A program made the translations under genes and the position numbers. 64,000 bases of DNA. It comes from a virus. The DNA lies in the IMG/VR virus record IMGVR_UViG_3300009149_000011, positions 1 through 64,000 of that record; one strand, given 5' to 3'. Of this stretch, positions 12,658 through 63,813 are shown piece by piece. A model generated the notes under the pieces. The model made no database searches. It was not told where the DNA came from and saw nothing but the letters and a program-made list of their open reading frames with translations. How positions within the stretch are numbered: position 1 is the stretch's first letter; each line of letters starts with the position of its first letter.

Positions 12658-13455
12658 ATGAAAAATAAAGATACATCAAAAAGTTTAATATACCAATTCT
12701 TAGATCATAATAATGAACCATTTTATGTAGGTAAAACAAACAATCTACATAGACGTAAACAAGAACATAAAAAAGATTTAAAAAAGAAAGCTAACCTATA
12801 TGTATATAGAAAGATAACCAAACTCATCAGGGATCATAATTACAAACTGAAAATAGATATTGTATCCGAAGGCTTGTCTGAATCAGAAGCAAATGCTATG
12901 GAAATAACGCTTATTAAAAAGTATAGAGATAAAGGATATAAATTATCCAATCTCACAGATGGTGGAGACGGTACTCTGGGTCATGTTCCAGTTTTTACAG
13001 ATGAGTGGAGAAAAAATTTAAGTGAAGCAGCCAAAAAAAGAGTTGCTAGAGATGGAGTTCCATTTAAAGGGAAAAAGCACTCTGATGAAACAAAGAAGAA
13101 ATTAAGCCAGGTGAGAAAAGGGAAAATGCAAGGCAAGGATAATCCTTTTTATGGAAAACATCACACCGAAGAATTGAAAAAAGCTAATGCAGAAAGAGCT
13201 AGAAAACTTTTTTCTGGAAAAAAACAAAATAAAGAACATAAAGAAAAAAGAAGGCAAGCTATGATTAAAAAATTTATTAAAGCTACCCCTCCAAATAAAA
13301 AAACATTTATATGGAAAGATAGCTCTTCTACTCTTTCAGATTTCCTACTTAAAGAATATGGATATAAAGTAGCTAGGGGAACAATAAGCACATACACAAA
13401 AAGTGAAAAAACACTTAAAAGCGGATGGAAATTTAAATATATAGAAAGATTCTAG
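12658..13455 (+). CDS. GIY-YIG homing endonuclease with NUMOD3 repeats, 265 aa
   Basis: GIY-YIG domain at residues 10-95: LIYQFLDHNNEPFYVGKTNN (Y...YVGK), then RRKQEHK with catalytic Arg and a Glu in ESEANAMEITLI. NUMOD3 DNA-binding repeats follow (FKGKKHSDETKKKLS, NPFYGKHHTEELKKA), then an HTH-like tail (AVARGTIS). Free-standing homing endonuclease like the T4 Seg enzymes, which cut a cognate site and spread by repair. One of only two plus-strand genes; its stop overlaps the PARP stop head-to-head (CTAG), the mark of an inserted mobile gene. Confidence 0.9.
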   Translation: MKNKDTSKSLIYQFLDHNNEPFYVGKTNNLHRRKQEHKKDLKKKANLYVYRKITKLIRDHNYKLKIDIVSEGLSESEANAMEITLIKKYRDKGYKLSNLTDGGDGTLGHVPVFTDEWRKNLSEAAKKRVARDGVPFKGKKHSDETKKKLSQVRKGKMQGKDNPFYGKHHTEELKKANAERARKLFSGKKQNKEHKEKRRQAMIKKFIKATPPNKKTFIWKDSSSTLSDFLLKEYGYKVARGTISTYTKSEKTLKSGWKFKYIERF

Positions 13456-14756
13456 CTTACTTCCACCAAATATTCTATAGTAGTTTGATTCTCATTGTAA
13501 ACCATATACTCATTATTTCTCAAATCAGCACCACCATGAGCAAACACTGAATCATAATCCCCTAGCCTTTTAAGACGCTCTTCTGTTAATTGAGAATGAG
13601 AGTGCTCCCATTTCTTAATGTGATACTGATTACCAACGTGAACACTATACAAAGCTAAGAACGCTTTGTCACTACTTCCATTTGCCCAGTACGACCCTCT
13701 AAGAGAGGTGTAACCTAAAGATTTCTTAAACTTATCTGAAAAATACGTCGATTGACCAAACATTTTTCCCGTTATTACAGCATTTGAGGGTCTTAACACT
13801 AATCCACCTTCCATGATAGACAACCAGTTCTCATTCCTAGATCCATGCCAGTACAATTCTACCGTTTTGTTATCGGCGCTGTTTCTATATTTATCGAATT
13901 TATTAAATGTCTTTTCATTCTTAACTCTAAAAGCGGACTTGAACATGTTAGATTCAGGGCCCATTTTCTTTTTAATCATGTCAATAGTAGCTTTATCAGT
14001 TACAGCTTCCATTTTTAGCCCCATAAGGTCCACAATAGTACCTGAAGGCTTATCGTCTCCGTCTTCCTCTTCCTCCTCATCTTGAGCCGCATTCATTTTT
14101 ACCTGGCCACGCATTACATCAAGAGTATCTTGCTCACTACCCAATAAGTCTTGAGCCACACTAATAGTATCTTTGTTAATGTTTTCCTCTAAAAGGTAAT
14201 CTCCAACGTGAGCCATTTTTCTTGGAATTACTTTATAAAGAGATAAAAGCTTTTCGTTTACAGCATCCTTATCCGTGCCTACTTTAATCAATCCTACAAT
14301 TTCATCGATAATCTCCTGAGCTCTATCAACCATCTTTACAGTTACGCTTTCAGAAGAAATTTCATAGTTCTCTTTTACCGACTTGTTAGAGTACGAGCTC
14401 AAAAGCTTCATAATTCTCTTAATCTCCGAATCGGCAATGTTAAAAATATCTTTTTCAACCTTTGGCTTCGATGGGTCTTTACTCTCCACATGAAACAGCT
14501 CGGTCATATCTTCATAACCTTTCTTCACCTTAGATCTAAGCGTGGAATCCCATTTAGACATTGGATAAACGGTTATTTTTAGATAAGTCTCTTCTAAAGT
14601 GTCTTGCTTGGTGGGATCAGCCCTACCCCAATGGGCTTCAAATTGACCATCACCTCTTTCGTACATATTGTACACTTTGTTGTTGTTTTTGCCATCACGA
14701 CCCTCAACAAAAACAAGTTTTTTAGCTCCAAGAATTACTTTAGTATCTGTACTCAT
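13452..14756 (-). CDS. poly(ADP-ribose) polymerase with WGR, regulatory and catalytic domains, 434 aa
   Basis: WGR domain at about residues 10-85 (YEAHWGRADPT-like core, FEAHWGRA seen). A helical regulatory domain follows, then a Glu/Asp-rich linker, then the ADP-ribosyltransferase domain. The H-Y-E triad is present: YWHGSR (His), GKMFGQSTYFSD (Tyr) and NEYMVYN (Glu), matching the HGS, GIYFAD and NEYIVYD motifs of PARP1. It should use NAD+ to build ADP-ribose chains, probably stimulated by DNA ends through WGR. Phage PARPs are known but rare; a role in host takeover or DNA-break response is inference. Confidence 0.9.
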   Translation of the reverse strand: MSTDTKVILGAKKLVFVEGRDGKNNNKVYNMYERGDGQFEAHWGRADPTKQDTLEETYLKITVYPMSKWDSTLRSKVKKGYEDMTELFHVESKDPSKPKVEKDIFNIADSEIKRIMKLLSSYSNKSVKENYEISSESVTVKMVDRAQEIIDEIVGLIKVGTDKDAVNEKLLSLYKVIPRKMAHVGDYLLEENINKDTISVAQDLLGSEQDTLDVMRGQVKMNAAQDEEEEEDGDDKPSGTIVDLMGLKMEAVTDKATIDMIKKKMGPESNMFKSAFRVKNEKTFNKFDKYRNSADNKTVELYWHGSRNENWLSIMEGGLVLRPSNAVITGKMFGQSTYFSDKFKKSLGYTSLRGSYWANGSSDKAFLALYSVHVGNQYHIKKWEHSHSQLTEERLKRLGDYDSVFAHGGADLRNNEYMVYNENQTTIEYLVEVS

Positions 14757-24227: not shown

Positions 24228-24305
24228 CTGGCACCAAATCGATGGAGTTGAACCACCTAGAATTGTAAAGAGAAATGCACTCGTTTACGCTAGAGAACCG
24301 CTCCC
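24228..24305 (-). other. tRNA remnant
   Basis: A good T arm (GGTGG-TTCAACT-CCATC, 24241-24257) and a D-arm-like CTCTAGCGTAAACGAG are present, but acceptor pairing is weak and the anticodon arm does not fold. Probably a decayed tRNA gene. Confidence 0.3.
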
Positions 24306-24338
24306 AGTATTGACCCAAAACTAGTTTGATTACTAGCA

Positions 24339-24408
24339 CAAATTAACCTGCTTTCGAAACAGGGACCTTCATAGTTCACAGACGCTCTTCCACCTGAGCT
24401 ATTAACCC
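24339..24408 (-). tRNA. tRNA-like gene with shortened anticodon arm
   Basis: Acceptor GGGTTAA/TTAATTT (three G-U pairs), D arm GCTC..GAGC and T arm CCTGT-TTCGAAA-GCAGG are intact, but only 14 nt replace the usual 17-nt anticodon arm and no 5-bp stem with U33 forms. Decoding identity cannot be assigned. Confidence 0.4.
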
Positions 24409-24423
24409 GCCTAAGTAATCTCG

Positions 24424-25782: not shown

Positions 25783-25853
25783 AGCTACGAGTGGCGCTTG
25801 CATCCACGACCTCCTGAATCTATCAGGCGCTCTACTATCTGAGCTATCCTAGC
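25783..25853 (-). tRNA. tRNA-like gene with a 5-nt anticodon loop
   Basis: Acceptor GCTAGGA/TCGTAGC (one mismatch), D arm GCTC..GAGC, perfect anticodon stem CCTGA/TCAGG but loop only TAGAT, two nt short, and T loop TGCAAGC. It cannot present a normal anticodon; decayed or non-decoding. Confidence 0.4.
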
Positions 25854-26002
25854 TTATTATTTTGCTTTTGTCTCCATCTTTTACGACCAATATTTCTTTT
25901 ATCCTTACCATTTCCTGCATTTAAAATGCCATAATTAGGAGTCAATGAATGACAATTTGGACAAAGCAATCTCGGATTTTTGACCAATATTTCAAAGAAC
26001 AA
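25844..26002 (-). pseudogene. HNH endonuclease remnant (carboxyl part)
   Basis: The frame reads VKNPRLLCPNCHSLTPNYG and a basic tail. RLLCPNCHS is the zinc-binding/second half of the HNH fold in phage homing endonucleases. The first half (His-Asn) is missing and the frame enters the neighbouring tRNA genes, so it is a truncated relic. Confidence 0.55.
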
Positions 26003-26324: not shown

Positions 26325-26395
26325 AGAAGACATACGAATCCCGTAAGGTGAAAATCACCTGCCCTTGGCCTTGACCAATTATGCGAGATATTATG
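26325..26395 (-). other. tRNA-Glu-like remnant
   Basis: TTGGTCAAGG (D-arm-like), GGTGATTTTCACC (anticodon hairpin with TTTC) and GGGATTCGTATG (T-loop-like) occur in tRNA order, but acceptor strands do not pair and the anticodon loop is too small. Lies between a promoter (26461) and a terminator (26263). Confidence 0.35.
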
Positions 26396-26460
26396 TTTGT
26401 CATTCTTTTCATTGTCTTTATAAATATGTAAGTTTTTCTATTATTCAAATACTAACGATA

Positions 26461-36636: not shown

Positions 36637-37527
36637 TTATTTAAAATCGGATGTATATTCAGTTACATAACGCTGCCTCATTAAAGTTATTTCTCCATGG
36701 TCTGGGGATATTTTCTCCGCTCTTTTAAGGCAAGACATTGCATATATAGGTAAACCATTTTGATCAAAGAAATATGCAAACTTCAAAAACTCTAGAGGAG
36801 ATGTAACGTCCATAGTAGATTCGATTTGATCCATCTCTATAGATATAGGACCTTCTTTTTCCATTGAGATTAGTGAAAATGTAGATTGACTGCTGTTTTT
36901 TGGATTACCTTTCTCCGTAACTCTTATAATGTAATCGCTAAAGTAGCTTAAAAGCATGAAATTTATATCAACTACAGTTTCAGTCCCAAAAGCTTCAGCC
37001 ATCCAAAAGGTTTCATCAAATAAATTCAAAACTTCTACTTTATATAATTTAGATTTTTCTCCCGTCCAAGAAATTTCAAATGGTTTAGAATGCAATACTT
37101 TAAACTTCCCTGGAAGTATAAGCTTAACATCTCCCAACCCTCTAGATACGCTACCTGTTACATTTGAATTTGATTTAGAATCTTGCTTCTCCATATTATT
37201 TAAAACAAAAGACGCGTATTTAGATGAAAAGCTGGATTTACTTCCTTGTAATTTTTCTTCCAAATTACTTGATACGTATGTACCATCAGTTTTTAATTCT
37301 AAAGTTTTTCCTGAAGAATGCATTAACCCAACGTATGATCCGCTAGATAATTTTATCTTAGAATCTAACAATATTTTACTCCCACTCTTAAGTAAGACCC
37401 ATCCATTTCCATCATTACCTTGAACCACCCCCTTACTAGCTAGCACTTTAAACGTGTACGCCGTATCTTGTCCAAATACTGATAAAATGCTCATAAACAA
37501 CATTATGCATAGTAAAAATTTTTTCAT
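36637..37527 (-). CDS. secreted FecR-like protein, 296 aa
   Basis: Signal peptide MKKFLLCIMLFMSILSVFGQ. Residues about 25-100 have the FecR pattern (VLASKGVVQGNDGNGWVLL, then SGSKILLDSKIKLSSGSYV), a periplasmic beta domain. The rest includes an Ig-like strand set (PGKFKVLHSKPFEISWTGEK) and a helical end resembling a TPR hairpin (YAMSCLKRAEKISPDHGE). Probable periplasmic or surface role; partner unknown. Confidence 0.65.
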   Translation of the reverse strand: MKKFLLCIMLFMSILSVFGQDTAYTFKVLASKGVVQGNDGNGWVLLKSGSKILLDSKIKLSSGSYVGLMHSSGKTLELKTDGTYVSSNLEEKLQGSKSSFSSKYASFVLNNMEKQDSKSNSNVTGSVSRGLGDVKLILPGKFKVLHSKPFEISWTGEKSKLYKVEVLNLFDETFWMAEAFGTETVVDINFMLLSYFSDYIIRVTEKGNPKNSSQSTFSLISMEKEGPISIEMDQIESTMDVTSPLEFLKFAYFFDQNGLPIYAMSCLKRAEKISPDHGEITLMRQRYVTEYTSDFK

Positions 37528-37871: not shown

Positions 37872-38025
37872 TGGGATAGGTAGGATTCGAACCTCAACCT
37901 TACTTTTGGATATCACTAGTAATACTAAGAATCTGCGCAGACTTCCTTTCTCACAAAGATTGTTTTACACAGTCGTAAAACGCCTTGCTCGCCGCAAGGT
38001 GGGCTCACCAGCGCCCAGCTACCCC
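37872..38025 (-). ncRNA. oversized tRNA-like RNA (about 154 nt)
   Basis: Ends pair as a full acceptor stem (GGGGTAG/CTATCCC). A D-like arm GGGC..GCCC, a hairpin CCTTG/CAAGG and a T-like arm ending TTCGAATCC are present, but about 80 extra nt lie between the anticodon-position hairpin and the T arm, including GTTTTAC/GTAAAAC. No anticodon with U33 is evident. Confidence 0.5.
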
Positions 38026-38039
38026 ATGTAGCTTTATTG

Positions 38040-38120
38040 TGGGAGTAGCAGGGATCGAACCTGCACGTTGTTAAACCACGGAGTTACAGTCCGCTAAGCC
38101 ACCAGTTGCTCAATACTCCC
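38040..38120 (-). tRNA. tRNA-Tyr (anticodon GTA)
   Basis: Acceptor GGGAGTA/TACTCCC, anticodon stem GCGGA/TCCGT, loop CTGTAAC (GTA), long variable arm as expected for Tyr, T arm TGCAG-TTCGATC-CTGCT-like, A73. Confidence 0.88.
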
Positions 38121-38121
38121 A

Positions 38122-38673
38122 TTAATTTTGTTTTGCTATAAAACTATCTCTGTATTTATTTACTCGCTCTGATATCAAATTTTTATATCTACTATGCATA
38201 TACATATGATGTGTAGGGCATAGTGGAATCAGATTATCTGGAGAGTTATTTTTTCTATCCTCATCATAATGATGAACATCTATAATTTTATCTTCTTCAC
38301 AAATAACACATTTTTTCTTATGATAATAAAAGCAAGTACTTCTATAAGCGTCATCTTTCCAATTAGGGTGATTAACTCCAGATCTATAATACGTATTAGC
38401 GCAAGAATGAGAACAGGTCACTTTTTCTTTAAGGCCTCCCAATCTTGTTTCAAATTTACCTAAACATATTGGACACTCTTTTTGGATTATGTCATATTTA
38501 ATATTTCTCTTAGATAACCCGCCATCAAAATGACTAACGTCCAACGAAAGGTCTTCAATCATTTTGGTGATTTTTCTTCGCCCTCCACCCCCAGTTACAT
38601 ATCCCATCTTTCTACATACATCGGATTTGCTTTTTGAACTTTTGACAGCTTCAATTAATTTTTCTTTATTCAT
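38122..38673 (-). CDS. HNH homing endonuclease, 183 aa
   Basis: Amino HTH (SSKSKSDVCRKMGYVTGGGG), zinc-ribbon-like CPICLGKF...CSHSCANTYYRSG with NHPNWKDD, then the HNH core CVICEEDKIIDVHHYDEDRK...NNSPDNLIPLCPTHHMYMH (His-His, Asn, His). Complete and apparently functional. It sits between two tRNA genes, the typical docking place of phage homing endonucleases. Confidence 0.9.
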   Translation of the reverse strand: MNKEKLIEAVKSSKSKSDVCRKMGYVTGGGGRRKITKMIEDLSLDVSHFDGGLSKRNIKYDIIQKECPICLGKFETRLGGLKEKVTCSHSCANTYYRSGVNHPNWKDDAYRSTCFYYHKKKCVICEEDKIIDVHHYDEDRKNNSPDNLIPLCPTHHMYMHSRYKNLISERVNKYRDSFIAKQN

Positions 38674-38761
38674 TATTTTTATTATAAATAATCAAATAAA
38701 AGTATACCACACATCTTTTGAATATGATTGTCCAAAAGTTGTAAGGTGTACCTAGTTTTAT

Positions 38762-38859
38762 GTCAGGAGTGGGGGATTCGAACACCCGAACCACACTAAC
38801 TGTGCGCAGTTATCCGTGTCCAAAACGGATGCCTTAAACCTTACTCGATCAATTCCTGA
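38762..38859 (-). tRNA. class II tRNA with Pro anticodon TGG
   Basis: Acceptor TCAGGA/TCCTGA, Ser/Leu-type D region (GGTTTAAGGC), anticodon stem TCCGT/ACGGA with loop TTTGGAC (TGG), and a 5-bp variable arm AACTG-CGCA-CAGTT. A proline anticodon on a long-variable-arm body is not normal; a separate ordinary tRNA-Pro(TGG) is at 40950. Charging identity uncertain. Confidence 0.6.
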
Positions 38860-38896
38860 TATCTCAAGGGAGTATACGCCTTACCCAAGAACTGCG

Positions 38897-38983
38897 TGGT
38901 GGGAGCGAGAGGGATCGAACCTCCTATCCATGCGGATTACCAGGGTTACAACCTGACGCCTAACCAATTTGTGCATCACTCCC
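38897..38983 (-). tRNA. tRNA-Tyr (anticodon GTA), second copy, CCA encoded
   Basis: Acceptor GGGAGTG/CGCTCCC followed by encoded ACCA; anticodon stem TCAGG/CCTGG, loop TTGTAAC (GTA); variable arm ATCC-GCAT-GGAT; T arm GGAGG-TTCGATC-CCTCT-like. Confidence 0.88.
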
Positions 38984-39003
38984 AATTTATGTGTCCTACT
39001 CCA

Positions 39004-39090
39004 AGAAGCAGACTGGACTCGAACCAGCGATCTTCGGCTTGGAATACGCAAATGCTTTTCCGACGCTCTATCCAACTGAGCTACAACCTC
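39004..39090 (-). tRNA. tRNA-like gene with 13-nt insertion in the anticodon arm
   Basis: D arm TAGCTCAG..GAGC and T arm GCTGG-TTCGAGT-CCAGT are normal and the acceptor GAGGTTG/CTGCTTC pairs with one mismatch, but the anticodon arm is 30 nt (TCGG...CCGA) instead of 17. TTCCAAG at its 3' side could be the original loop (Trp CCA or Gly TCC). Confidence 0.45.
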
Positions 39091-39094
39091 TCTT

Positions 39095-39280
39095 CAGACA
39101 CATACTTAATAGCTTCATCTACTTTATCAGATTGTTGCTTCCTTTCATTAAACTTTTACTTTCAGACCTGTCCAGCTCTTCCCTGGATCACAGTTTTTAA
39201 GGTCTAGCCTTTGCGTATGTTATCGTCCAGCTAATCGTTTAATTTCCAGAAACACTTCCCATCCATTTCCTTGAAGTGTT
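39095..39280 (-). pseudogene. decayed coding fragment between tRNAs
   Basis: One frame reads coding-like pieces (EHFKEMDGKCFWKLND; LDDNIRKG; TLKTVIQGRAGQV; KFNERKQQSDKVDEAIKYVS) separated by two TAG, one TGA and one TAA. Looks like a broken gene, possibly an endonuclease tail. Low certainty. Confidence 0.25.
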
Positions 39281-39285
39281 CGGTG

Positions 39286-39360
39286 TGGAGGATATCGGAG
39301 TCGAACCGATGACCTCTGCAGTGCAAGTGCAGCGCTCTAAGCCAGCTGAGCTAATCCCCC
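39286..39360 (-). tRNA. tRNA-Ala (anticodon TGC)
   Basis: Acceptor GGGGGAT/ATCCTCC, anticodon stem CTGCA/TGCAG, loop CTTGCAC (TGC), T arm ATCGG-TTCGACT-CCGAT, A73. Confidence 0.9.
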
Positions 39361-39419
39361 AAATATAATTCTATGCAGCTACTCTATAAGCTCTATGAAT
39401 TATTAACAGTCTCTCTCGT

Positions 39420-39492
39420 GGACACATACGGGCTTCGAACCCGTGACTCCTGGGTGCAAACCAAGTGTGATAGCCAACTTCACCAACGGCCC
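39420..39492 (-). tRNA. tRNA-Ala-like (anticodon TGC), poor acceptor
   Basis: Anticodon stem CTTGG/CCAGG, loop TTTGCAC (TGC) and T arm ACGGG-TTCGAAG-CCCGT are good, but acceptor strands GGGCCGT and ATGTGTC pair badly. May be a degenerate second tRNA-Ala. Confidence 0.55.
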
Positions 39493-39503
39493 AAATATTA
39501 TTA

Positions 39504-39580
39504 TGGCGGTCCAGAAGGAATTCGAATCCTCAATCTCTCCCGTGACAGGGGAGCAACATGCGCCGATATGATGCTGGACC
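39504..39580 (-). tRNA. tRNA-Asp (anticodon GTC), CCA encoded
   Basis: Acceptor GGTCCAG/CTGGACC, G73 and encoded CCA, anticodon stem CTCCC/GGGAG, loop CTGTCAC (GTC). Confidence 0.88.
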
Positions 39581-39660
39581 ATGGTGGAGGGATTTTAGTT
39601 GACCTGCAGGATCAATTTAACTTTCACCACCCCCCGATGTGAATCACAATGAAAGTATTG

Positions 39661-39736
39661 CGGGATATACGGGATTCGAACCCGTGACCTTCTGCGTGAC
39701 AGGCAGACATCCTAAGCCAGACTAGACCAATACCCC
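39661..39736 (-). tRNA. tRNA-Asp (anticodon GTC), second copy
   Basis: Acceptor GGGGTAT/ATATCCC, G73, anticodon stem TCTGC/GCAGA, loop CTGTCAC (GTC), T arm ACGGG-TTCGAAT-CCCGT. Confidence 0.9.
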
Positions 39737-39944
39737 AATTAAAATTATCTATCCATTTCTAAGTGGAATATTTTCATTGACAAACGATCTGCTTTCACAG
39801 GCAATCCCTCAATATCTTACAATAAACAACGTCATCTTAGCATGACTATAAAACTTACCTAACGAACCTATCTCTGCCGCTCTAGGAGGTGTAGGGATTC
39901 AACCCACTTCATAGTTTTACTGCTTATCTTCAGTAGATAATTAG

Positions 39945-40017
39945 CTCTCGCGCCTGGGCTTGAACCAGGGACCATCGGAGTAACAATCCGAAGCTCTACC
40001 AGCTGAGCTACACGAGA
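39945..40017 (-). tRNA. tRNA-Asn (anticodon GTT)
   Basis: Acceptor TCTCGTG/CGCGAGA, G73, anticodon stem TCGGA/TCCGA, loop TTGTTAC (GTT), T arm CCTGG-TTCAAGC-CCAGG. Confidence 0.9.
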
Positions 40018-40019
40018 AT

Positions 40020-40585
40020 TTACACTTTAATGATTCCAGCATGTATCTCTCTATGACAATTAGAACACACTAAAATACATTTATCAAGTTCTTTTTTTAC
40101 TTTATCCCAAGAGTAACAATAACCTCTATGGCTTAAGGAAAAATCTTTTTCATTAGGATCAATGTGGTGAAACTCTAAAGCTCCGATATACTTGTCATAT
40201 CCACAACACTGACATTTTTCACCTTTATAATCCACGGCCATATCTTTAACTTTTCTCCTTCTTTTTTGTACAGCTTCGATTCCCCTCTTTCTTTTTTCTT
40301 CCAGAGAATAGGTTTTATTTTTTTCAGCTGAATATAATTTGTAACAGTACTCCTGCTAAATCCAAATTTTTCAGCCACTTTATTACTTGACCCACATTCA
40401 TCATAATACCTTTGCATATCAGAAATTGTATTTTCATCTATTCTTAAATCAGGAGCTCCAATACCAGCTTTTCTGCAATGATGAGAGACAGTGGATTTAG
40501 AACACCCTAATTCTTCGCTTATCTCTTTGTAAATCTTACCTTGTTTTCTTAGATCAATAATCTTACCTTTTAGAACACTTGTCAT
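40020..40585 (-). pseudogene. HTH-HNH homing endonuclease broken by a frameshift
   Basis: The 5' frame (from ATG 40585) encodes two HTH units (YKEISEELGCSKSTVSHHCR; KVAEKFGFSRSTVT). The 3' frame holds KRKRGIEAVQKRRRKVKDMA then the HNH core CQCCGYDKYIGALEFHHIDP and LVCSNCHREIHAG. The two join only if a one-base shift near 40340-40360 (just before an A7 run) is restored. Inactivated copy beside tRNA-Asn. Confidence 0.75.
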
Positions 40586-40640
40586 ATAAATTAATTTTTA
40601 TTGTTAATCTAAAAAGACGAAGGTCTAAAGTAAATAGTTT

Positions 40641-40716
40641 TGAGAATCATCTGAGACTCGAACTCAGATCTCTAAGTTTAACAAACTTGCATTTAAGCTA
40701 TTAAACTAAAAGTCCT
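40641..40716 (-). other. tRNA-Asn-like remnant
   Basis: T arm CTGAG-TTCGAGT-CTCAG is perfect and an anticodon-like loop TTGTTAA (GTT) on stem AAGT/ACTT is present, but the acceptor strands scarcely pair and the D arm is AT-only. Probably decayed. Confidence 0.4.
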
Positions 40717-40722
40717 TTTTTG

Positions 40723-40896
40723 CTGTAGGAGAAGGATTCGAACCTTCAAGGTGCAGTTACCGATTAGACATTTTGCTTACTCTAAGTATTTTAATGCTTA
40801 GTGGTCAATCCATTATCTAACGTTTATCCCGTGATCACCGCCTTCGAGACAGGAAGGTGCGTTTGCCCAGACCGAAGTCCGTTTCGCCACCCTACA
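40723..40896 (-). ncRNA. oversized tRNA-like RNA (about 174 nt)
   Basis: Acceptor TGTAGGG/TCCTACA pairs fully. The 5' part is Leu/Ser-like (TGGCGAAAC...ACGC) with an extra GGAC-TTCG-GTCT hairpin in the D loop, then CCTTC/GAAGG with loop CTGTCTC. About 90 nt follow before the T arm GAAGG-TTCGAAT-CCTTC. An intron or a tRNA-like RNA with a giant variable region are both possible. Confidence 0.5.
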
Positions 40897-40949
40897 ATTT
40901 GTTATTACCAACATGTCAAAGAACTGGAAGTAAACTTTTTTACTTCTCG

Positions 40950-41023
40950 TCGGAGCAGTAGGATTCGAACCTACGACCTCACCCCTCCAAAGGGCGTAAA
41001 CAACCTGACCGTTATCTACTCCG
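40950..41023 (-). tRNA. tRNA-Pro (anticodon TGG)
   Basis: Acceptor CGGAGTA/TGCTCCG, anticodon loop TTTGGAG (TGG) on stem CGCCC/GGGTG, normal variable loop, T arm GTAGG-TTCGAAT-CCTAC, A73. Confidence 0.88.
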
Positions 41024-41563: not shown

Positions 41564-42388
41564 TTAACTAGTAGGAAAGGTTGTTATAGTTTCATTATTT
41601 TTATCTATCACTAAAACTGGCATCTTATCGATCCCTAATTCTATAGCAGCATACGCTCTATGTCTACCATCGTGATCTACTACTTTATTATTATTCAAAT
41701 ATAATGTAGGAGGATCTATTTTCACACCTTTTTCCATCATATTTTTCAAGTCCTCTATATTATCTTTAGAATCTTCATCCTCAACATTCAATGCGGGGGA
41801 CAGTTTTAAAAACTTTTCTGGAGACATCATAAAAATCTTACCACCTCTTGCTTCATAGTCAGAGTCTCCATATTCTGGAGGCAAAGCAACTGGATATTGT
41901 GCAGAATTCTCTTTAACAGATAGTATTGGGTTAGATGTTTGAAAACCCTTTTTCCTCATCACCGTCTTGCTTACAAGGTCCATTTCTTGATTCTTCTCAT
42001 CCCATTCTAAAGCGAATGGAATATTAATGTCTGTAGATAAGCTTTTTATAACAGCTTGAAAGCTTGCTCCAGATTTATTGATGTCATCCTTATATTTAGA
42101 ATACACTTCCTTGAAGATAGCTCTTAGCTCGTCAATAGTGATATCCTTCTTGTTTCTAGGATCATTTACTCTATCTAAAAAATGTTTAGTAAACTCAATA
42201 TCAATTCCAGCTCCAGCAAAAAGAGCATCCAATTCTCTTTCTAAAGAATTTAGATGCTCACTTGTTATATAAGAATTGTAGGCGGGATCATCATGGGCAA
42301 TTTTTTTACCCATATCAACAGACCCTATCCTTGGTCGCTTTTCTAAAAAAAGTTTAACCTCTTCCTTAATTATGTCTATTAGTTTCAT
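41564..42388 (-). CDS. phage-type protein with ParB-like carboxyl domain, 274 aa
   Basis: Amino helix MKLIDIIKEEVKLFLEKR (shared IIxEEIxxFL motif), then FTKHFLDRVNDPRNKKDITI, a domain seen in phage structural-region proteins. At the end PPTLYLNNNKVVDHDGRHRA and IELGIDKMPVLVI form a ParB/Srx-like fold with DGRHR as the nucleotide-binding loop. Many phage ParB-like domains are NTP-dependent or nuclease-like; activity here is unproven. ATGA overlap with 42385. Confidence 0.65.
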   Translation of the reverse strand: MKLIDIIKEEVKLFLEKRPRIGSVDMGKKIAHDDPAYNSYITSEHLNSLERELDALFAGAGIDIEFTKHFLDRVNDPRNKKDITIDELRAIFKEVYSKYKDDINKSGASFQAVIKSLSTDINIPFALEWDEKNQEMDLVSKTVMRKKGFQTSNPILSVKENSAQYPVALPPEYGDSDYEARGGKIFMMSPEKFLKLSPALNVEDEDSKDNIEDLKNMMEKGVKIDPPTLYLNNNKVVDHDGRHRAYAAIELGIDKMPVLVIDKNNETITTFPTS

Positions 42389-50975: not shown

Positions 50976-52508
50976 TTAGTTTTCAATTAACTCAAAGTCT
51001 GTTCTCCTATTTTTAGACCTACCTTTTGAGGTAGAGTTGTCAGCTACAGGTTTATCTGGACCGTTACCTACAACTACGAACCTATTTGGATCAAATCCAT
51101 GTTCTGAAGCCAAGTAGTCAGCAACCGCTTGAGCTCTTTGTTTAGATATTCTCTTATTAGTAGATAAGCTTCCTGTGTTATCAGTGTTACCTTGAATTCT
51201 AATACGAGCGTTACCGAAACTCTTAGCTATTTCCAAAAACTGTAAGTCAATTATATATTTAGAATTCTCATCTAACTTATAAGCTCCAGTGGGGAATGTA
51301 ATAGTTACTTGTTTAGTTGAAATTGCTTCTTTAGTTATTAGAGCCGCAGTAGGCGCTTCGAAAGTTACCCCTCCTTCAGCATCATTTTCAGAACCACTTA
51401 ATGAAACGCTGCTTACAATTTCCTTGGTAGATACAGATCTCCAATTAGGAACTGTGCTAACAAAACCTAACTGGCTATATTTGTTACCCATATTTCTATA
51501 AAGATCTTCACCAGTAACCCCTCTATAAGAACCATCAAGTCCAAAGAAAGCTTGATTATCTCCCAGCGTTGCTAATCTTACATTATTAATAGCTGAGTAG
51601 CAGAAATTATAATCCATACCTAATCCTTTTTGAAGGATTTGAGCTGCTTCTTTCTTAGCTGATTCAGTTGTATTAATTGCGGCAGAACCTTTCATCCAAC
51701 CTTCAAACAATTGCGTCAACTCTTTATTATTATTATCTATGAAATCTTGCTTAGCAAAGAATACATCAGCGATAATATTAGAAGCCGTTTTAGTAGACTG
51801 TAATACCTTAGAGCCTTTTACGTTATCAACACAGTCAGCATCGTCTGGAGACCACACTACAGCCCCATCTACACTGCCAGATTTAAACATAGACGCGGCA
51901 TCAATTGCACTAGCTACCTCTATAATATTTACATCAGATGTTTTTAGATTACTAGTTTCAAGTAAATTGATTAAGAAAGAGTGAGACGGAGTCATATAAG
52001 CTACCGCAATTTTCTTTCCTTTTAAATCAGATACATTACCAATACCTCTTCGAACTACTATAGCATCTCCTCCACGGGACCAATCTGCCTGGAATACAAT
52101 CTTAGGATCAAACTCCTTAAGAGCATCAGCTTCAGTAGGGAAGGCATCAACTGTTGCCCATAATAAATCCACATCTCCTGATTTCCAAGCTTCTCTTGAG
52201 GCAACGAAGTCATCTAAAACTTTGAACTCTACTAGGAATCCGTAGTCTTTATAAAATTTAGAGGCAGTGTTAGCTTCAAAGCCTTTATTCCAAAACTGGC
52301 CTCCAGCATATCCACCCCAAGTCACTACTCCGACTTTAATGGTTTTTGTATCTTCAGATACGTCTGCAGCTTCTGCAGTTTGTTTATTTTCTTCAGGTGT
52401 TGGAATCACGCTATCTAGCGCTCCAGTGAAGTGAAGAGCCGCATAGATACCCCCGAACACGAGAGTAAATATAAAGATCTTAGCAAATGGTGTCATTGAT
52501 TTCCACAT
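50976..52508 (-). CDS. ABC substrate-binding protein fused to OmpA peptidoglycan-binding domain, 510 aa
   Basis: One transmembrane anchor (residues 9-29, IFIFTLVFGGIYAALHF), then a periplasmic binding domain of the NMT1/TauA/SsuA type (KTIKVGVVTWGGYAGGQFWN, WKSGDVDLLWATVDAFPTEA, DLKGKKIAVAYMTPSHSFLI, VDGAVVWSPDDADCVD). The end is an OmpA domain: RIRIQGNTDNTGS, NKRISKQRAQAVADYL, KGRSKNRRTDFEL (Asp and Arg that bind meso-DAP). The fusion would fix the receptor to the cell wall. Ligand unknown. Confidence 0.85.
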   Translation of the reverse strand: MWKSMTPFAKIFIFTLVFGGIYAALHFTGALDSVIPTPEENKQTAEAADVSEDTKTIKVGVVTWGGYAGGQFWNKGFEANTASKFYKDYGFLVEFKVLDDFVASREAWKSGDVDLLWATVDAFPTEADALKEFDPKIVFQADWSRGGDAIVVRRGIGNVSDLKGKKIAVAYMTPSHSFLINLLETSNLKTSDVNIIEVASAIDAASMFKSGSVDGAVVWSPDDADCVDNVKGSKVLQSTKTASNIIADVFFAKQDFIDNNNKELTQLFEGWMKGSAAINTTESAKKEAAQILQKGLGMDYNFCYSAINNVRLATLGDNQAFFGLDGSYRGVTGEDLYRNMGNKYSQLGFVSTVPNWRSVSTKEIVSSVSLSGSENDAEGGVTFEAPTAALITKEAISTKQVTITFPTGAYKLDENSKYIIDLQFLEIAKSFGNARIRIQGNTDNTGSLSTNKRISKQRAQAVADYLASEHGFDPNRFVVVGNGPDKPVADNSTSKGRSKNRRTDFELIEN

Positions 52509-56744: not shown

Positions 56745-57112
56745 TTTAGTTTAAAGACCTGAGAGGAGGCTCCGCCTCCCCTAAAGTCTCGAATTCTTTT
56801 AATTGAATGAATGCTGATTAGGCAGCCATTGCAAGAGATTCTGTGTTTACGTTTATTTCGCCGTTTACTTGTTTTGATCTAACTCTTTTCACTCCGTTCA
56901 TCATGACCAGTCAAGTGCCAGTTAATCCCCATTTAAACTCTTTACCTTAAAGTTTGATTTCTCAGGGACAATAAGGAATCAGATAACTGTTTCCATGTCA
57001 TAGTTACGTTTCCGAAGAAAGAGGCTTTACTAGACCTAGTGGAGAATTGGGGAGTTGAACCCCAGTCCTGTGAAACTTCTCGAAACAAATACGAACGAGT
57101 AGCGATCCTGTA
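56745..57112 (-). ncRNA. ssrA: tmRNA, apparently circularly permuted
   Basis: Tag frame at 56862-56821: GGC resume codon then G-E-I-N-V-N-T-E-S-L-A-M-A-A and TAA; the ending LAMAA is a typical degron and GE.N is Bacteroidota-like. The T arm/acceptor end (TGGGG-TTCAACT-CCCCA-ATTCTCC, 57064-57041) lies upstream of the tag, while the tRNA-like 5' end GGGGATTAACTGG (56930-56918) follows it, the order of permuted genes. GGGGA pairs with TCTCC, and GAAC-G-GAGTG (56899-56890) with TACTCGTTC (57101-57093). Exact ends unknown. Confidence 0.75.
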
Positions 57113-62254: not shown

Positions 62255-62265
62255 TTTAAAGTTAG

Positions 62266-62338
62266 AGGGAGTGATGGGGCTCGAACCCACGACCACGGTG
62301 TTAGAGACCGCTGTTCTAACCAGCTGAACTACACTCCC
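62266..62338 (-). tRNA. amber-suppressor-type tRNA (anticodon CTA)
   Basis: Complete cloverleaf: acceptor GGGAGTG/CACTCCC, D arm GTTCAGCTGGTTAGAAC, anticodon stem GCGGT/ACCGT with loop CTCTAAC (U33, anticodon CTA, A37), T arm GTGGG-TTCGAGC-CCCAT, U73. CTA reads UAG. The amino acid it carries cannot be read from sequence with certainty; the acceptor GGGAGTG equals that of tRNA-Tyr at 38897. Confidence 0.88.
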
Positions 62339-62409: not shown

Positions 62410-63318
62410 TTATATACTATTCAGTAGATCTGAGATGTATTTTGGAGGAGTTTCTTCTGGATCATTATCGTTTTCAACAGATCCTTTAATCCACTCAGAA
62501 ATGTCAGCAATGTCGTTTAGATCGTATTTATCATCCAATCCCGACTCTTTCATTTGATCTAGCCAAGCACTCCACGCTTTTTCTCTACCTTTCTCAACCA
62601 AGTCATACAAAAACCCTTTTAGTAAAGGGTTGTTTATTTTTTCTAATACAGATTTATCAATATGCTTATCATTTGAATCATTAAAAGCTTTTTCTAATTC
62701 ATTAAACCAAGCTTTTATTTCTGGTTTTAGATCAAGCTTTTCTAGTATAATAACAAAAAACTCTTTATCTCTATCTGTGTTGAATTTCTTTACATCATAA
62801 ACATCCGCTATATGATTATTTGTCTTCCCTTTAACTTTCATAGCATTTACTGCTTCTGATTTATCGGAGGTTATCTTCATTACCTTTCCATCTCCAATAT
62901 CATGAGCTGGCCCAAACATCCCCTTCCCTATAAAAGAAGATTTTTCAATACCCATTTTAGATTTTATTTTATCTAACATAGTTTCTTCATTCAAGTCTAA
63001 CCCCTCTGGCTCCTGATTAAAAGAAGAATAGTAATCACCAAACCCAAGATCGAAAACACCTAGATTTCCATTTGTTTTAATTCCTAAATTATCGACATTA
63101 ATAAAGTCTTTAGAATCAATACCACTTTCCCTTACTTCAGATACTAATGAGATAAATTGCTGTAGCACTTTCTTTAACTTATCATCCAACATGGGAACTT
63201 CAAACAATGAAGCGTCAGACCCATCATGTATATTAGAAATAAAGTCTTTAAAACTAACTTTCTTTTGCTCTAATAAAGCTCTTCTAACCTCTTCTTGTAT
63301 GATGTTTATAATATCCAT
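62410..63318 (-). CDS. protein-kinase-like protein with permuted motif order, 302 aa
   Basis: MDIINIIQEEVRRALLEQKK opening (shared IIxEEI motif). FIGKGMFGPAHDIGDGKVMK with KIT is a Gly-rich loop plus invariant-type Lys, and FVIILEKLD a hinge. NVDNLGIKTNGNLGVFDLG and FGDY, which resembles the catalytic loop and DFG segment (..N.G....GNL...DFG), comes before the Gly-rich loop, not after. So it may be a circularly permuted or degenerate kinase. No clear HRD Asp. Confidence 0.55.
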   Translation of the reverse strand: MDIINIIQEEVRRALLEQKKVSFKDFISNIHDGSDASLFEVPMLDDKLKKVLQQFISLVSEVRESGIDSKDFINVDNLGIKTNGNLGVFDLGFGDYYSSFNQEPEGLDLNEETMLDKIKSKMGIEKSSFIGKGMFGPAHDIGDGKVMKITSDKSEAVNAMKVKGKTNNHIADVYDVKKFNTDRDKEFFVIILEKLDLKPEIKAWFNELEKAFNDSNDKHIDKSVLEKINNPLLKGFLYDLVEKGREKAWSAWLDQMKESGLDDKYDLNDIADISEWIKGSVENDNDPEETPPKYISDLLNSI

Positions 63319-63342: not shown

Positions 63343-63481
63343 TAGCGTAGAGAGGAGTCGAACCTCTACTTAATCATTATAAACATTAGAACCGCCGCAA
63401 GCAGGAGTTGCCCCAAATTTCACGCGCCATGAAACTCTTCTAATGCCTATTACTTTGGGTATACCCAATTGTAACTACGCT
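63343..63481 (-). ncRNA. oversized tRNA-like RNA (about 139 nt)
   Basis: Acceptor AGCGTAG/CTACGCT, D-like arm TTAC/GTAA with an extra GGGTATACCC hairpin, T arm AGAGG-TTCGACT-CCTCT. In the anticodon position an 8-bp stem CATTAGAA/TTCTAATG encloses about 46 nt with their own stems (GAGTT/AACTC, TTTCA/TGAAA). Looks like a tRNA with an inserted domain or intron. Confidence 0.5.
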
Positions 63482-63573: not shown

Positions 63574-63649
63574 CGCCCAAGGAAGGATTCGAACCTCCAA
63601 ACATAAACTTTGCGGAATTTATGACATCATACCGTTTGATGTCTTGGGC
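63574..63649 (-). tRNA. tRNA-like gene, anticodon arm with CCGCAA loop
   Basis: Acceptor GCCCAAG/CTTGGGC, D arm CATC/GATG and T arm GGAGG-TTCGAAT-CCTTC are normal. The anticodon arm is 22 nt: CATAAATT/AGTTTATG closing the 6-nt loop CCGCAA, so there is no U33 and no ordinary 7-nt loop. Confidence 0.55.
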
Positions 63650-63655
63650 AACTTG

Positions 63656-63733
63656 AGCTCCTGGAAGGGATCGAACCTCCGAACTTTCTAAACCTTGCGG
63701 GGTTTAGCGCTTATACCAACCAGCCACAGGAGC
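63656..63733 (-). tRNA. tRNA-like gene, anticodon arm with CCGCAA loop
   Basis: Acceptor GCTCCTG/CAGGAGC, T arm GGAGG-TTCGATC-CCTTC. Anticodon arm 20 nt: CTAAACC/GGTTTAG (7 bp) closing CCGCAA. Same hexaloop as its neighbours. Confidence 0.55.
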
Positions 63734-63738
63734 ATTTT

Positions 63739-63813
63739 GAGCGAAGGGGTAGAATCGAACTACCGTACTATAGGTTTGCGGACCTATCGCCTAACCACTC
63801 GGCAACCTTCGCT
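63739..63813 (-). tRNA. tRNA-Cys-like gene, anticodon arm with CCGCAA loop
   Basis: Acceptor AGCGAAG/CTTCGCT, D region GCCGAGTGGTTAGGC as in tRNA-Cys, T arm GGTAG-TTCGATT-CTACC. Anticodon arm ATAGGT/ACCTAT closes CCGCAA: like the Cys loop CTGCAAA but with C33 and one A fewer. Confidence 0.6.

What the first reader, a model, noticed from the sequence alone, without database searches (positions are those of the whole stretch)
37872..41023. Oversized tRNA-like RNAs
Seen: 37872-38025 (154 nt), 40723-40896 (174 nt) and also 63343-63481 (139 nt) have perfect or near-perfect 7-bp acceptor pairing and a T arm, but carry 50-90 extra nt with internal hairpins, including a GAC-TTCG-GTC hairpin. 39004-39090 has a smaller 13-nt insertion. 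Group I introns are normally larger. Inference: a new class of tRNA-like RNA, tRNAs with very small introns, or giant variable regions.
Basis: partly seen in the sequence, partly recalled or inferred. Interest (0 to 1): 0.7.

Follow-up and report, generated by a model that had tools for sequence, protein, structure and literature searches.

The report
Oversized tRNA-like genes in huge phages
A giant bacterial virus carries transfer-RNA-like genes about twice the normal size; one of them is conserved, fold and all, in a distantly related 636-kb virus, so it is a real RNA with an extra structured domain, and following it up turned up a separate family of tiny intron-like inserts in tRNA genes of many phages and some bacteria.

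Summary
The window is part of a 149-kb huge-phage record. In detail: three tRNA-like genes (153, 173, 138 nt) have 7-bp acceptors and T arms, and neither ARAGORN nor Rfam calls them. They differ in strength.

RNA2 (40724-40896) is solid. A homolog sits in the 636-kb huge phage LR756504. All 33 proposed pairs are kept, 11 with changes on both sides (0/500 shuffles). Both share the anticodon loop CUGUCUC and a folded 75-92-nt domain between anticodon and T arms. I read it as a tRNA-like RNA with a retained giant variable arm: neither intron nor pseudogene. Its function is inferred only.

RNA3 has a perfect 7-bp acceptor and an unusually stable fold, with its insert in the anticodon loop. RNA1 is weaker. 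Neither has a found relative.

Oversized tRNA genes recur in related huge phages (10 perfect acceptors against 0.9 expected).

Off-target find: over 30 oversized tRNA genes in phages and bacterial contigs share a 38-57-nt insert after position 28/29 (covarying hairpin plus ACAGCAA). Its removal restores a 5-bp anticodon stem in most. It looks like an undescribed tiny tRNA intron, but it is absent from this record. Splicing is untested.

The parts
40724..40896 (-). RNA2: 173-nt tRNA-like RNA (acceptor 40890-40896 with 40724-40730; discriminator G at 40723)
   Evidence: 7-bp acceptor, 3-bp D stem, 5-bp anticodon stem, 5-bp T stem; homolog in LR756504 (L086:9896-10041); 33/33 pairs kept, 11 double changes
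40841..40857 (-). RNA2 anticodon arm CCUUC-CUGUCUC-GAAGG (GUC at 34-36, pyrimidine at 37)
   Evidence: loop identical in the homolog (UCUCC-CUGUCUC-GGAGA), stem covaries
40748..40840 (-). RNA2 giant variable domain: closing helix GGUG/CACC, 6-bp covarying helix (40816-40821 with 40763-40768), conserved GGGAUAAACG and UGGAUUGACCAC
   Evidence: four of six pairs of the inner helix change on both sides between the two phages
40870..40879 (-).
   Evidence: present in sequence; absent from the LR756504 homolog, so not conserved
37873..38025 (-). RNA1: 153-nt tRNA-like sequence; D arm GGGC-GCUGGUGA-GCCC, anticodon-like arm CCUUG-CGGCGAG-CAAGG (no U33), about 84 nt before the T arm with hairpins such as GUUUUAC/GUAAAAC
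   Evidence: sequence and fold; T stem imperfect; no relatives
63344..63481 (-). RNA3: 138-nt tRNA-like sequence; 7 WC acceptor, 8-bp helix CAUUAGAA/UUCUAAUG in the anticodon-stem position
   Evidence: z -3.14, 1 of 200 shuffles folds as well
63392..63437 (-). RNA3 insert of about 46 nt inside the anticodon arm (hairpin UUUCAUG...CGUGAAA)
   Evidence: fold; no match to tiny-intron model R2
39004..39090 (-). RNA4: tRNA with about 13 extra nt in the anticodon loop
   Evidence: Rfam tRNA 45.3 bits; sequence
38762..38858 (-). 97-nt tRNA-Pro(UGG)-like gene with a 16-nt hairpin (UAACUG-CGCA-CAGUUA) as variable arm
   Evidence: ARAGORN; sequence
40175..40585 (-). HTH protein gene next to RNA2, HNH endonuclease-like by DNA similarity; an HNH-like gene also abuts the homolog in LR756504
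   Evidence: Pfam HTH hits, DNA similarity to annotated HNH genes, reading of L086:9600-9899

Best explanation
RNA2 is a functional tRNA-like RNA gene of huge phages. The cloverleaf has a class-II (Ser/Leu-like) D arm, an anticodon arm with an invariant loop CUGUCUC, G at position 73, and a variable arm enlarged into a 75-92-nt structured domain closed by GGUG/CACC. The likely route is: transcription with the tRNA array, trimming by host RNase P and 3' processing, CCA addition (CCA is not encoded), and retention of the extra domain in the mature RNA. The most likely use is not routine decoding but a tRNA or tRNA mimic reshaped at the variable region, plausibly to resist or occupy host tRNA-cleaving defences. 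Shown here: the sequence, the conserved fold and the recurrence of oversized tRNA genes in relatives. Inferred: expression, processing, retention and role. RNA1 and RNA3 are probably of the same general kind (tRNA genes with an added domain) but are unrelated in sequence and unproven.
For: Homolog in LR756504 (L086:9896-10041; also IMGVR 3300012582_000005, identical where read). All 33 pairs in 7 helices kept, 11 pairs with changes on both sides, 0/500 shuffles reach it, slid structures give 0-1. The domain sits exactly where a class-II variable arm sits, with 1-nt and 2-nt linkers. Blocks CUGUCUC, GGUGAU-A-GGGAUAAACG, UGGAUUGACCAC and UAACU-CACC are nearly invariant although stems differ. In another huge phage (G008) three oversized genes share a comparable extra domain ending UACAAGCA. 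No tRNA splicing endonuclease family (PF01974) in 20 huge-phage records searched, while it rings in 4 archaeal controls. Precedent for variable-region remodelling as evasion: T5 tRNA-Tyr resists retron-Eco7 because of its distinctive variable loop, and Septu cuts there (PMC13096335).
Against: Only two independent RNA2 sequences. The covariance model found no third among about 27 other phage records or the 14 pattern loci. Position 37 is a pyrimidine, unusual for a decoding tRNA. RNA2's folding energy is no better than shuffles (z 0.04). No transcript data. The defence role is by analogy only. RNA1 has a poor T stem and no U33.
Confidence: 0.6

Rival explanations
1. The extra nucleotides are small introns that are spliced out by an unknown mechanism, leaving normal-size tRNAs.
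For: Tiny intron-like inserts do exist in tRNA genes of other phages, including the huge phage LR756501 and XbC2, and some huge phages encode RtcB or T4-type RNA ligase. RNA3 and RNA4 inserts lie in the anticodon loop, the canonical intron site.
Against: No match to the tiny-intron model in the whole 149-kb record. No RtcB, tRNA endonuclease or Rnl1-type ligase found in the record, which is partial. In RNA2 the domain lies in the variable region and its own sequence is conserved and closed by a helix, as for a retained arm.
Confidence: 0.15
2. They are decaying tRNA genes (pseudogenes) in a fast-evolving array.
For: The record carries several degenerate tRNA-like sequences missed by tRNA finders (for example 24340-24413 and 25790-25858). 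RNA1 has a poor T stem and no U33; no relatives of RNA1 and RNA3.
Against: RNA2 keeps 33/33 pairs with 11 double changes; RNA3 has 7/7 acceptor and 5/5 T-stem pairs and z -3.14; oversized genes with perfect acceptors are ten-fold over control in relatives.
Confidence: 0.2
3. Two neighbouring half-tRNAs or a chance pairing of an orphan T arm with an unrelated upstream stretch make the RNAs look like single genes.
For: Controls give 2-8 chance pairings per 81 orphan T arms at the loose threshold; some loose hits in relatives visibly contain another tRNA.
Against: RNA2's homolog keeps the same pairing; 7/7 matches are 10 against 0.9 expected; D arms follow the 5' acceptor strands directly.
Confidence: 0.05

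Closest known systems
Class II tRNAs (tRNA-Ser, -Leu, bacterial -Tyr) with long variable arms
   Same: RNA2 has the class-II type D arm (GGCGAAACGG...CAAACGC), G73 and a variable arm closed by a short helix between anticodon and T arms.
   Different: Class II variable arms are about 10-20 nt; here the region is 93 nt (75 in the homolog), multi-helical, with invariant sequence blocks; the anticodon triplet is GUC (Asp) with a pyrimidine at 37.
Allo-tRNAs and other tRNAs with novel cloverleaf structures (recalled from the literature; paper not held)
   Same: Bacterial and mobile-element tRNAs with unusual arms missed by standard tools.
   Different: Those differ in acceptor/T-branch and D/anticodon stem lengths, not by a 75-92-nt extra domain.
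Group I introns in bacterial tRNA genes
   Same: Enlarge tRNA genes by insertion in the anticodon arm.
   Different: Far larger and ribozyme-based; none reported by Rfam here. A 2014 review states that all phage introns seen by then were in protein genes despite many phage tRNAs (PMC3984707).
Archaeal bulge-helix-bulge tRNA introns
   Same: Can be very short and lie at several tRNA positions.
   Different: Need the splicing endonuclease family PF01974, not found in 20 huge-phage records; no bulge-helix-bulge was evident on inspection.
tmRNA, including permuted tmRNA (RF04321)
   Same: tRNA-like ends with a large internal domain; the record has a permuted tmRNA hit at 56818-57099.
   Different: RNA1-3 have a D arm and anticodon-arm-like helix and were not called as tmRNA by ARAGORN or Rfam.

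Membership tests
tRNA (canonical, Rfam RF00005) | 7-bp acceptor and 5-bp T arm with TTCRANY loop | tested here: met
   RNA2 and RNA3; RNA1 only 3 of 5 T-stem pairs
tRNA (canonical, Rfam RF00005) | score over the RF00005 gathering cut-off | tested here: not met
   RNA1-3 not called at gathering threshold nor among the 34 matches of the own-genome search; RNA4 is (45.3 bits)
tRNA (canonical, Rfam RF00005) | 7-nt anticodon loop with U33 and purine 37 | tested here: inconclusive
   RNA2: 7-nt loop with U33 but U37; RNA1: G33; RNA3: loop enlarged
tRNA (canonical, Rfam RF00005) | aminoacylation and decoding | not testable with these tools
   needs expression and charging assays
Class II tRNA | variable arm with a stem between anticodon and T arms | tested here: met
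   GGUG/CACC stem plus covarying 6-bp helix in RNA2 and its homolog
Class II tRNA | variable region of about 10-20 nt | tested here: not met
   93 nt in RNA2
Group I intron in a tRNA | Rfam group I match / catalytic core of about 200 nt | tested here: not met
   no such match over gathering threshold in the window; inserts are under 100 nt
Archaeal-type BHB intron | splicing endonuclease PF01974 in the record | tested here: not met
   0 of 20 records; 4 archaeal controls ring. The host could supply it; the host is unknown.
Tiny phage tRNA insert (hairpin + ACAGCAA, model R2) | match to covariance model R2 at a tRNA | tested here: not met
   window and rest of G000: best E 0.04, not at a tRNA
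tmRNA | tmRNA call by ARAGORN or Rfam | tested here: not met
   RNA1-3 not called; a separate permuted tmRNA is called at 56818-57099

The most novel reading that the evidence does not exclude
Phage tRNA genes carry at least two undescribed kinds of insert. One is a retained structured variable domain that makes a conserved tRNA-like RNA (RNA2 of this window and LR756504). The other, not in this record but found by following it up, is a new class of 38-57-nt tRNA intron after position 28/29 of the anticodon stem (A-rich leader, covarying hairpin, ACAGCAA) in tRNAs for Lys, Asn, Asp, Arg, Pro, Thr, Ser, Ile, Phe and Gly of many phages and at least one bacterial chromosome, removed by an unknown mechanism.
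Probability: 0.45. Interest if true: 0.9.

Novelty: new variant of a known kind. Interest (0 to 1): 0.62.

Why it matters
tRNA finders miss these genes, so the tRNA repertoires of huge phages are undercounted and misread. A conserved tRNA-like RNA with a built-in extra domain would be a new tool in the arms race around tRNA-cleaving defences or in translation takeover. If the separate tiny inserts are spliced, they would be an intron class about a fifth the size of group I introns, in phage tRNAs where no introns had been reported as of a 2014 review (PMC3984707), and would make the enzyme or ribozyme that removes them a direct experimental target.

Tried and rejected
Relatives of RNA1 and RNA3 by DNA similarity in named phages and about 25 huge-phage records: none (RNA1 hits were only T arms of ordinary tRNAs). 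Close relatives of the neighbouring proteins 36637-37527 and 62410-63318 in IMG/VR: none; the 41564-42388 protein was too general. Wider RNA2 search by motif patterns and model R1: only the LR756504 type; other R1 hits are ordinary tRNAs, or unconvincing (L232:1884-2025, 142 nt, 24 bits; L158:10549-10669). A match between the LR756501 insert and a Pseudomonas phage Milchi tRNA-Asp was a mistake of mine: the query extended into the next tRNA. Four of the 22 loose oversized hits appear to be chance pairings, three of them visibly spanning another tRNA arm (L155, L176:10215, L182, L185). Test whether the insert-bearing tRNA-Lys of Ruminococcus flavefaciens is the only one there, which would force splicing: an intact tRNA-Lys(UUU) exists, so not decisive. 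P1-like pairing of the 5' exon with the tiny insert holds in some members only and was dropped as a defining feature.
Full report
Where it is. The window is bases 1-64000 of a 149,006-base IMG/VR virus record, with no sign of completeness. An OmpA-like protein (50976-52508) is 38% identical to the 735-kb phage LR756501 and 41-42% to Lak phages, and retrieves 23 further IMG/VR contigs, many of huge-phage size. I call the source a huge-phage relative; the host is unknown. ARAGORN finds 22 tRNAs in the window and 8 more in the following 20 kb.

The observation. RNA1 (37873-38025), RNA2 (40724-40896) and RNA3 (63344-63481), all on the - strand, have the acceptor pairings described and are missed by ARAGORN and by Rfam's tRNA model. 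RNA4 (39004-39090) is a normal tRNA hit with about 13 extra nucleotides in the anticodon loop. Chance was tested on 600 kb of tRNA-array DNA from this record and about 20 other records, mostly related huge phages. Among 81 T arms without a normal-size acceptor partner, 22 have a 7-bp partner at 98-230 nt (shuffled controls 2-8), and 10 have a 7/7 Watson-Crick partner (control mean 0.9, maximum 4 in 500). RNA3 is one of the ten. RNA1 does not enter this count because its T stem has only 3 regular pairs.

RNA2 is conserved. A blastn hit of RNA2's 3' end led to LR756504 (636 kb), where a 142-nt relative follows an HNH-like endonuclease gene; the same sequence lies in IMGVR 3300012582_000005. The alignment has a mean column identity of 79%, and its two long gaps are the D-loop hairpin and a 19-nt apical hairpin present only in the window. 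In a structure I wrote down (acceptor, D, anticodon, T stems, the GGUG/CACC closing helix, an inner 6-bp helix, a 3-bp hairpin), 33 of 33 pairs are kept and 11 change on both sides; no shuffle of 500 reaches this and slid structures give 0-1. The changes spread over acceptor, D, anticodon, T and inner helices, so both the tRNA frame and the extra domain are under selection. Caveat: two sequences only, and I chose the structure after seeing both. Minimum free energy alone does not single RNA2 out (z 0.04).

How RNA2 likely works. Shown: fold and invariant blocks. From established knowledge: RNase P and the 3' processing enzymes read the acceptor/T-arm half, which is intact; CCA is not encoded, so it would be added. 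Inferred: the extra domain stays in the mature RNA, because it occupies the class-II variable-arm site, is closed by its own helix and is conserved in sequence. The loop CUGUCUC contains GUC but has a pyrimidine at 37; the D arm and G73 resemble serine tRNAs, whose synthetase reads the variable arm. I therefore doubt routine aspartate decoding. Phage tRNAs with altered variable loops are known to escape tRNA-cutting defences: T5 tRNA-Tyr resists retron-Eco7, and Septu cuts the variable loop (PMC13096335). A decoy or cleavage-resistant role is my best guess, not a result.

RNA1 and RNA3. RNA3 folds better than all but one of 200 shuffles (z -3.14) and places a 46-nt insert inside an anticodon-arm-like 8-bp helix. 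RNA1 (z -1.87) has a good D arm and an anticodon-like arm without U33, then about 84 nt of hairpins. No relatives of either were found. They may be functional, unique or decaying; I cannot tell.

Wider pattern. Oversized tRNA genes with perfect acceptors occur in LR756501, LR756500, G002, G008, G010 and XbC2. In G008 three of them (124, 132, 134 nt) look like a family: short hairpin, long-range helix around a hairpin mostly with a GCAA tetraloop, then UACAAGCA before the T arm.

Off-target finding: tiny tRNA inserts. XbC2 tRNA-Lys (122 nt) carries an insert kept in Kaldavass, GAP32, CBB, BF and Erwinia phages. LR756501 has it in a tRNA-Arg and cyanophage BUCT-ZZ01 in a tRNA-Asn; Aeh1 and PX29 carry it too. 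A pattern (D arm, 14-40 nt, ACAGCAA) returned 56 IMG/VR and 78 GTDB stretches; 32 distinct oversized tRNA genes pass the acceptor and T-arm test, one of them (L317, an archaeal contig) doubtful. In most, removing 38-57 nt after position 28 or 29 gives a 5-bp anticodon stem and a 7-nt loop with U33 for Lys, Asn, Asp, Arg, Pro, Thr, Ser, Ile, Phe or Gly. ACAGCAA is partly a result of the search; the hairpin is not: all 7 pairs covary in 24 sequences, and model R2 finds members not used to build it, such as a second copy each in Aeh1, PX29 and BUCT-ZZ01. In Ruminococcus flavefaciens FD-1 the gene stands beside alaS with an encoded CCA, so it is not confined to phages, but an intact tRNA-Lys(UUU) exists there. 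Splicing is not shown; an anticodon stem interrupted by such a domain would be hard to use unspliced, and PX29's annotators joined two pieces. Nothing in the held literature described it, and a 2014 review states that no phage tRNA intron was then known (PMC3984707). Subscription papers and preprints were not searchable. The element is absent from this record.

Verdict. RNA2 is a real conserved tRNA-like RNA and a new variant of the tRNA kind; RNA1 and RNA3 are plausible but unproven. The intron reading is not supported in this window but has a strong candidate elsewhere.

Noticed in passing
L159:3198-3314(-), L087:17911-18032(-), L206-L212, L216-L218, and about 30 of L237-L369: Family of 38-57-nt intron-like inserts at tRNA position 28/29 or 29/30 (A-rich leader, covarying hairpin, ACAGCAA) in phage and some bacterial tRNA genes; removal restores the anticodon stem in most.
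   Followed up: partly
L368:3213-3330(-) (Ruminococcus flavefaciens FD-1): Insert-bearing tRNA-Lys(UUU) with encoded CCA next to alaS on what looks like chromosomal DNA; an intact tRNA-Lys(UUU) exists elsewhere in the genome.
   Followed up: yes
L312 and L338 (CAMWUK010000002.1, Clostridiaceae MAG contig): Several insert-bearing tRNA genes on one contig, none called by ARAGORN.
   Followed up: partly
L176:8935-9067, L177:1835-1966, L177:2127-2250: Three oversized tRNA-like genes in huge phage G008 sharing a large variable domain ending in UACAAGCA.
   Followed up: partly
window 56818-57099(-): Rfam permuted tmRNA (RF04321, 51.2 bits) in a phage.
   Followed up: no
window 63574-63649, 63655-63733, 63739-63812 (-): Three adjacent tRNA genes whose enlarged anticodon loops all hold CCGCAA; ARAGORN reads a four-base anticodon CGCA in two of them.
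   Followed up: no
window 62265-62338 and G000 64291-64364 (-): Two tRNAs with anticodon CUA (amber suppressors).
   Followed up: no
window 24230-24413, 25790-25858, 26330-26400 (-): Degenerate or truncated tRNA-like sequences missed by tRNA finders, some with 5-nt anticodon loops.
   Followed up: partly
L232:1884-2025(-): 142-nt tRNA-like sequence with a class-II D arm and 7-bp acceptor (AATGCGG/CCGCATT), not called by ARAGORN.
   Followed up: no
window 13452-14756(-): PARP-type ADP-ribosyltransferase, 40% identical to one in huge phage LR756500.
   Followed up: no
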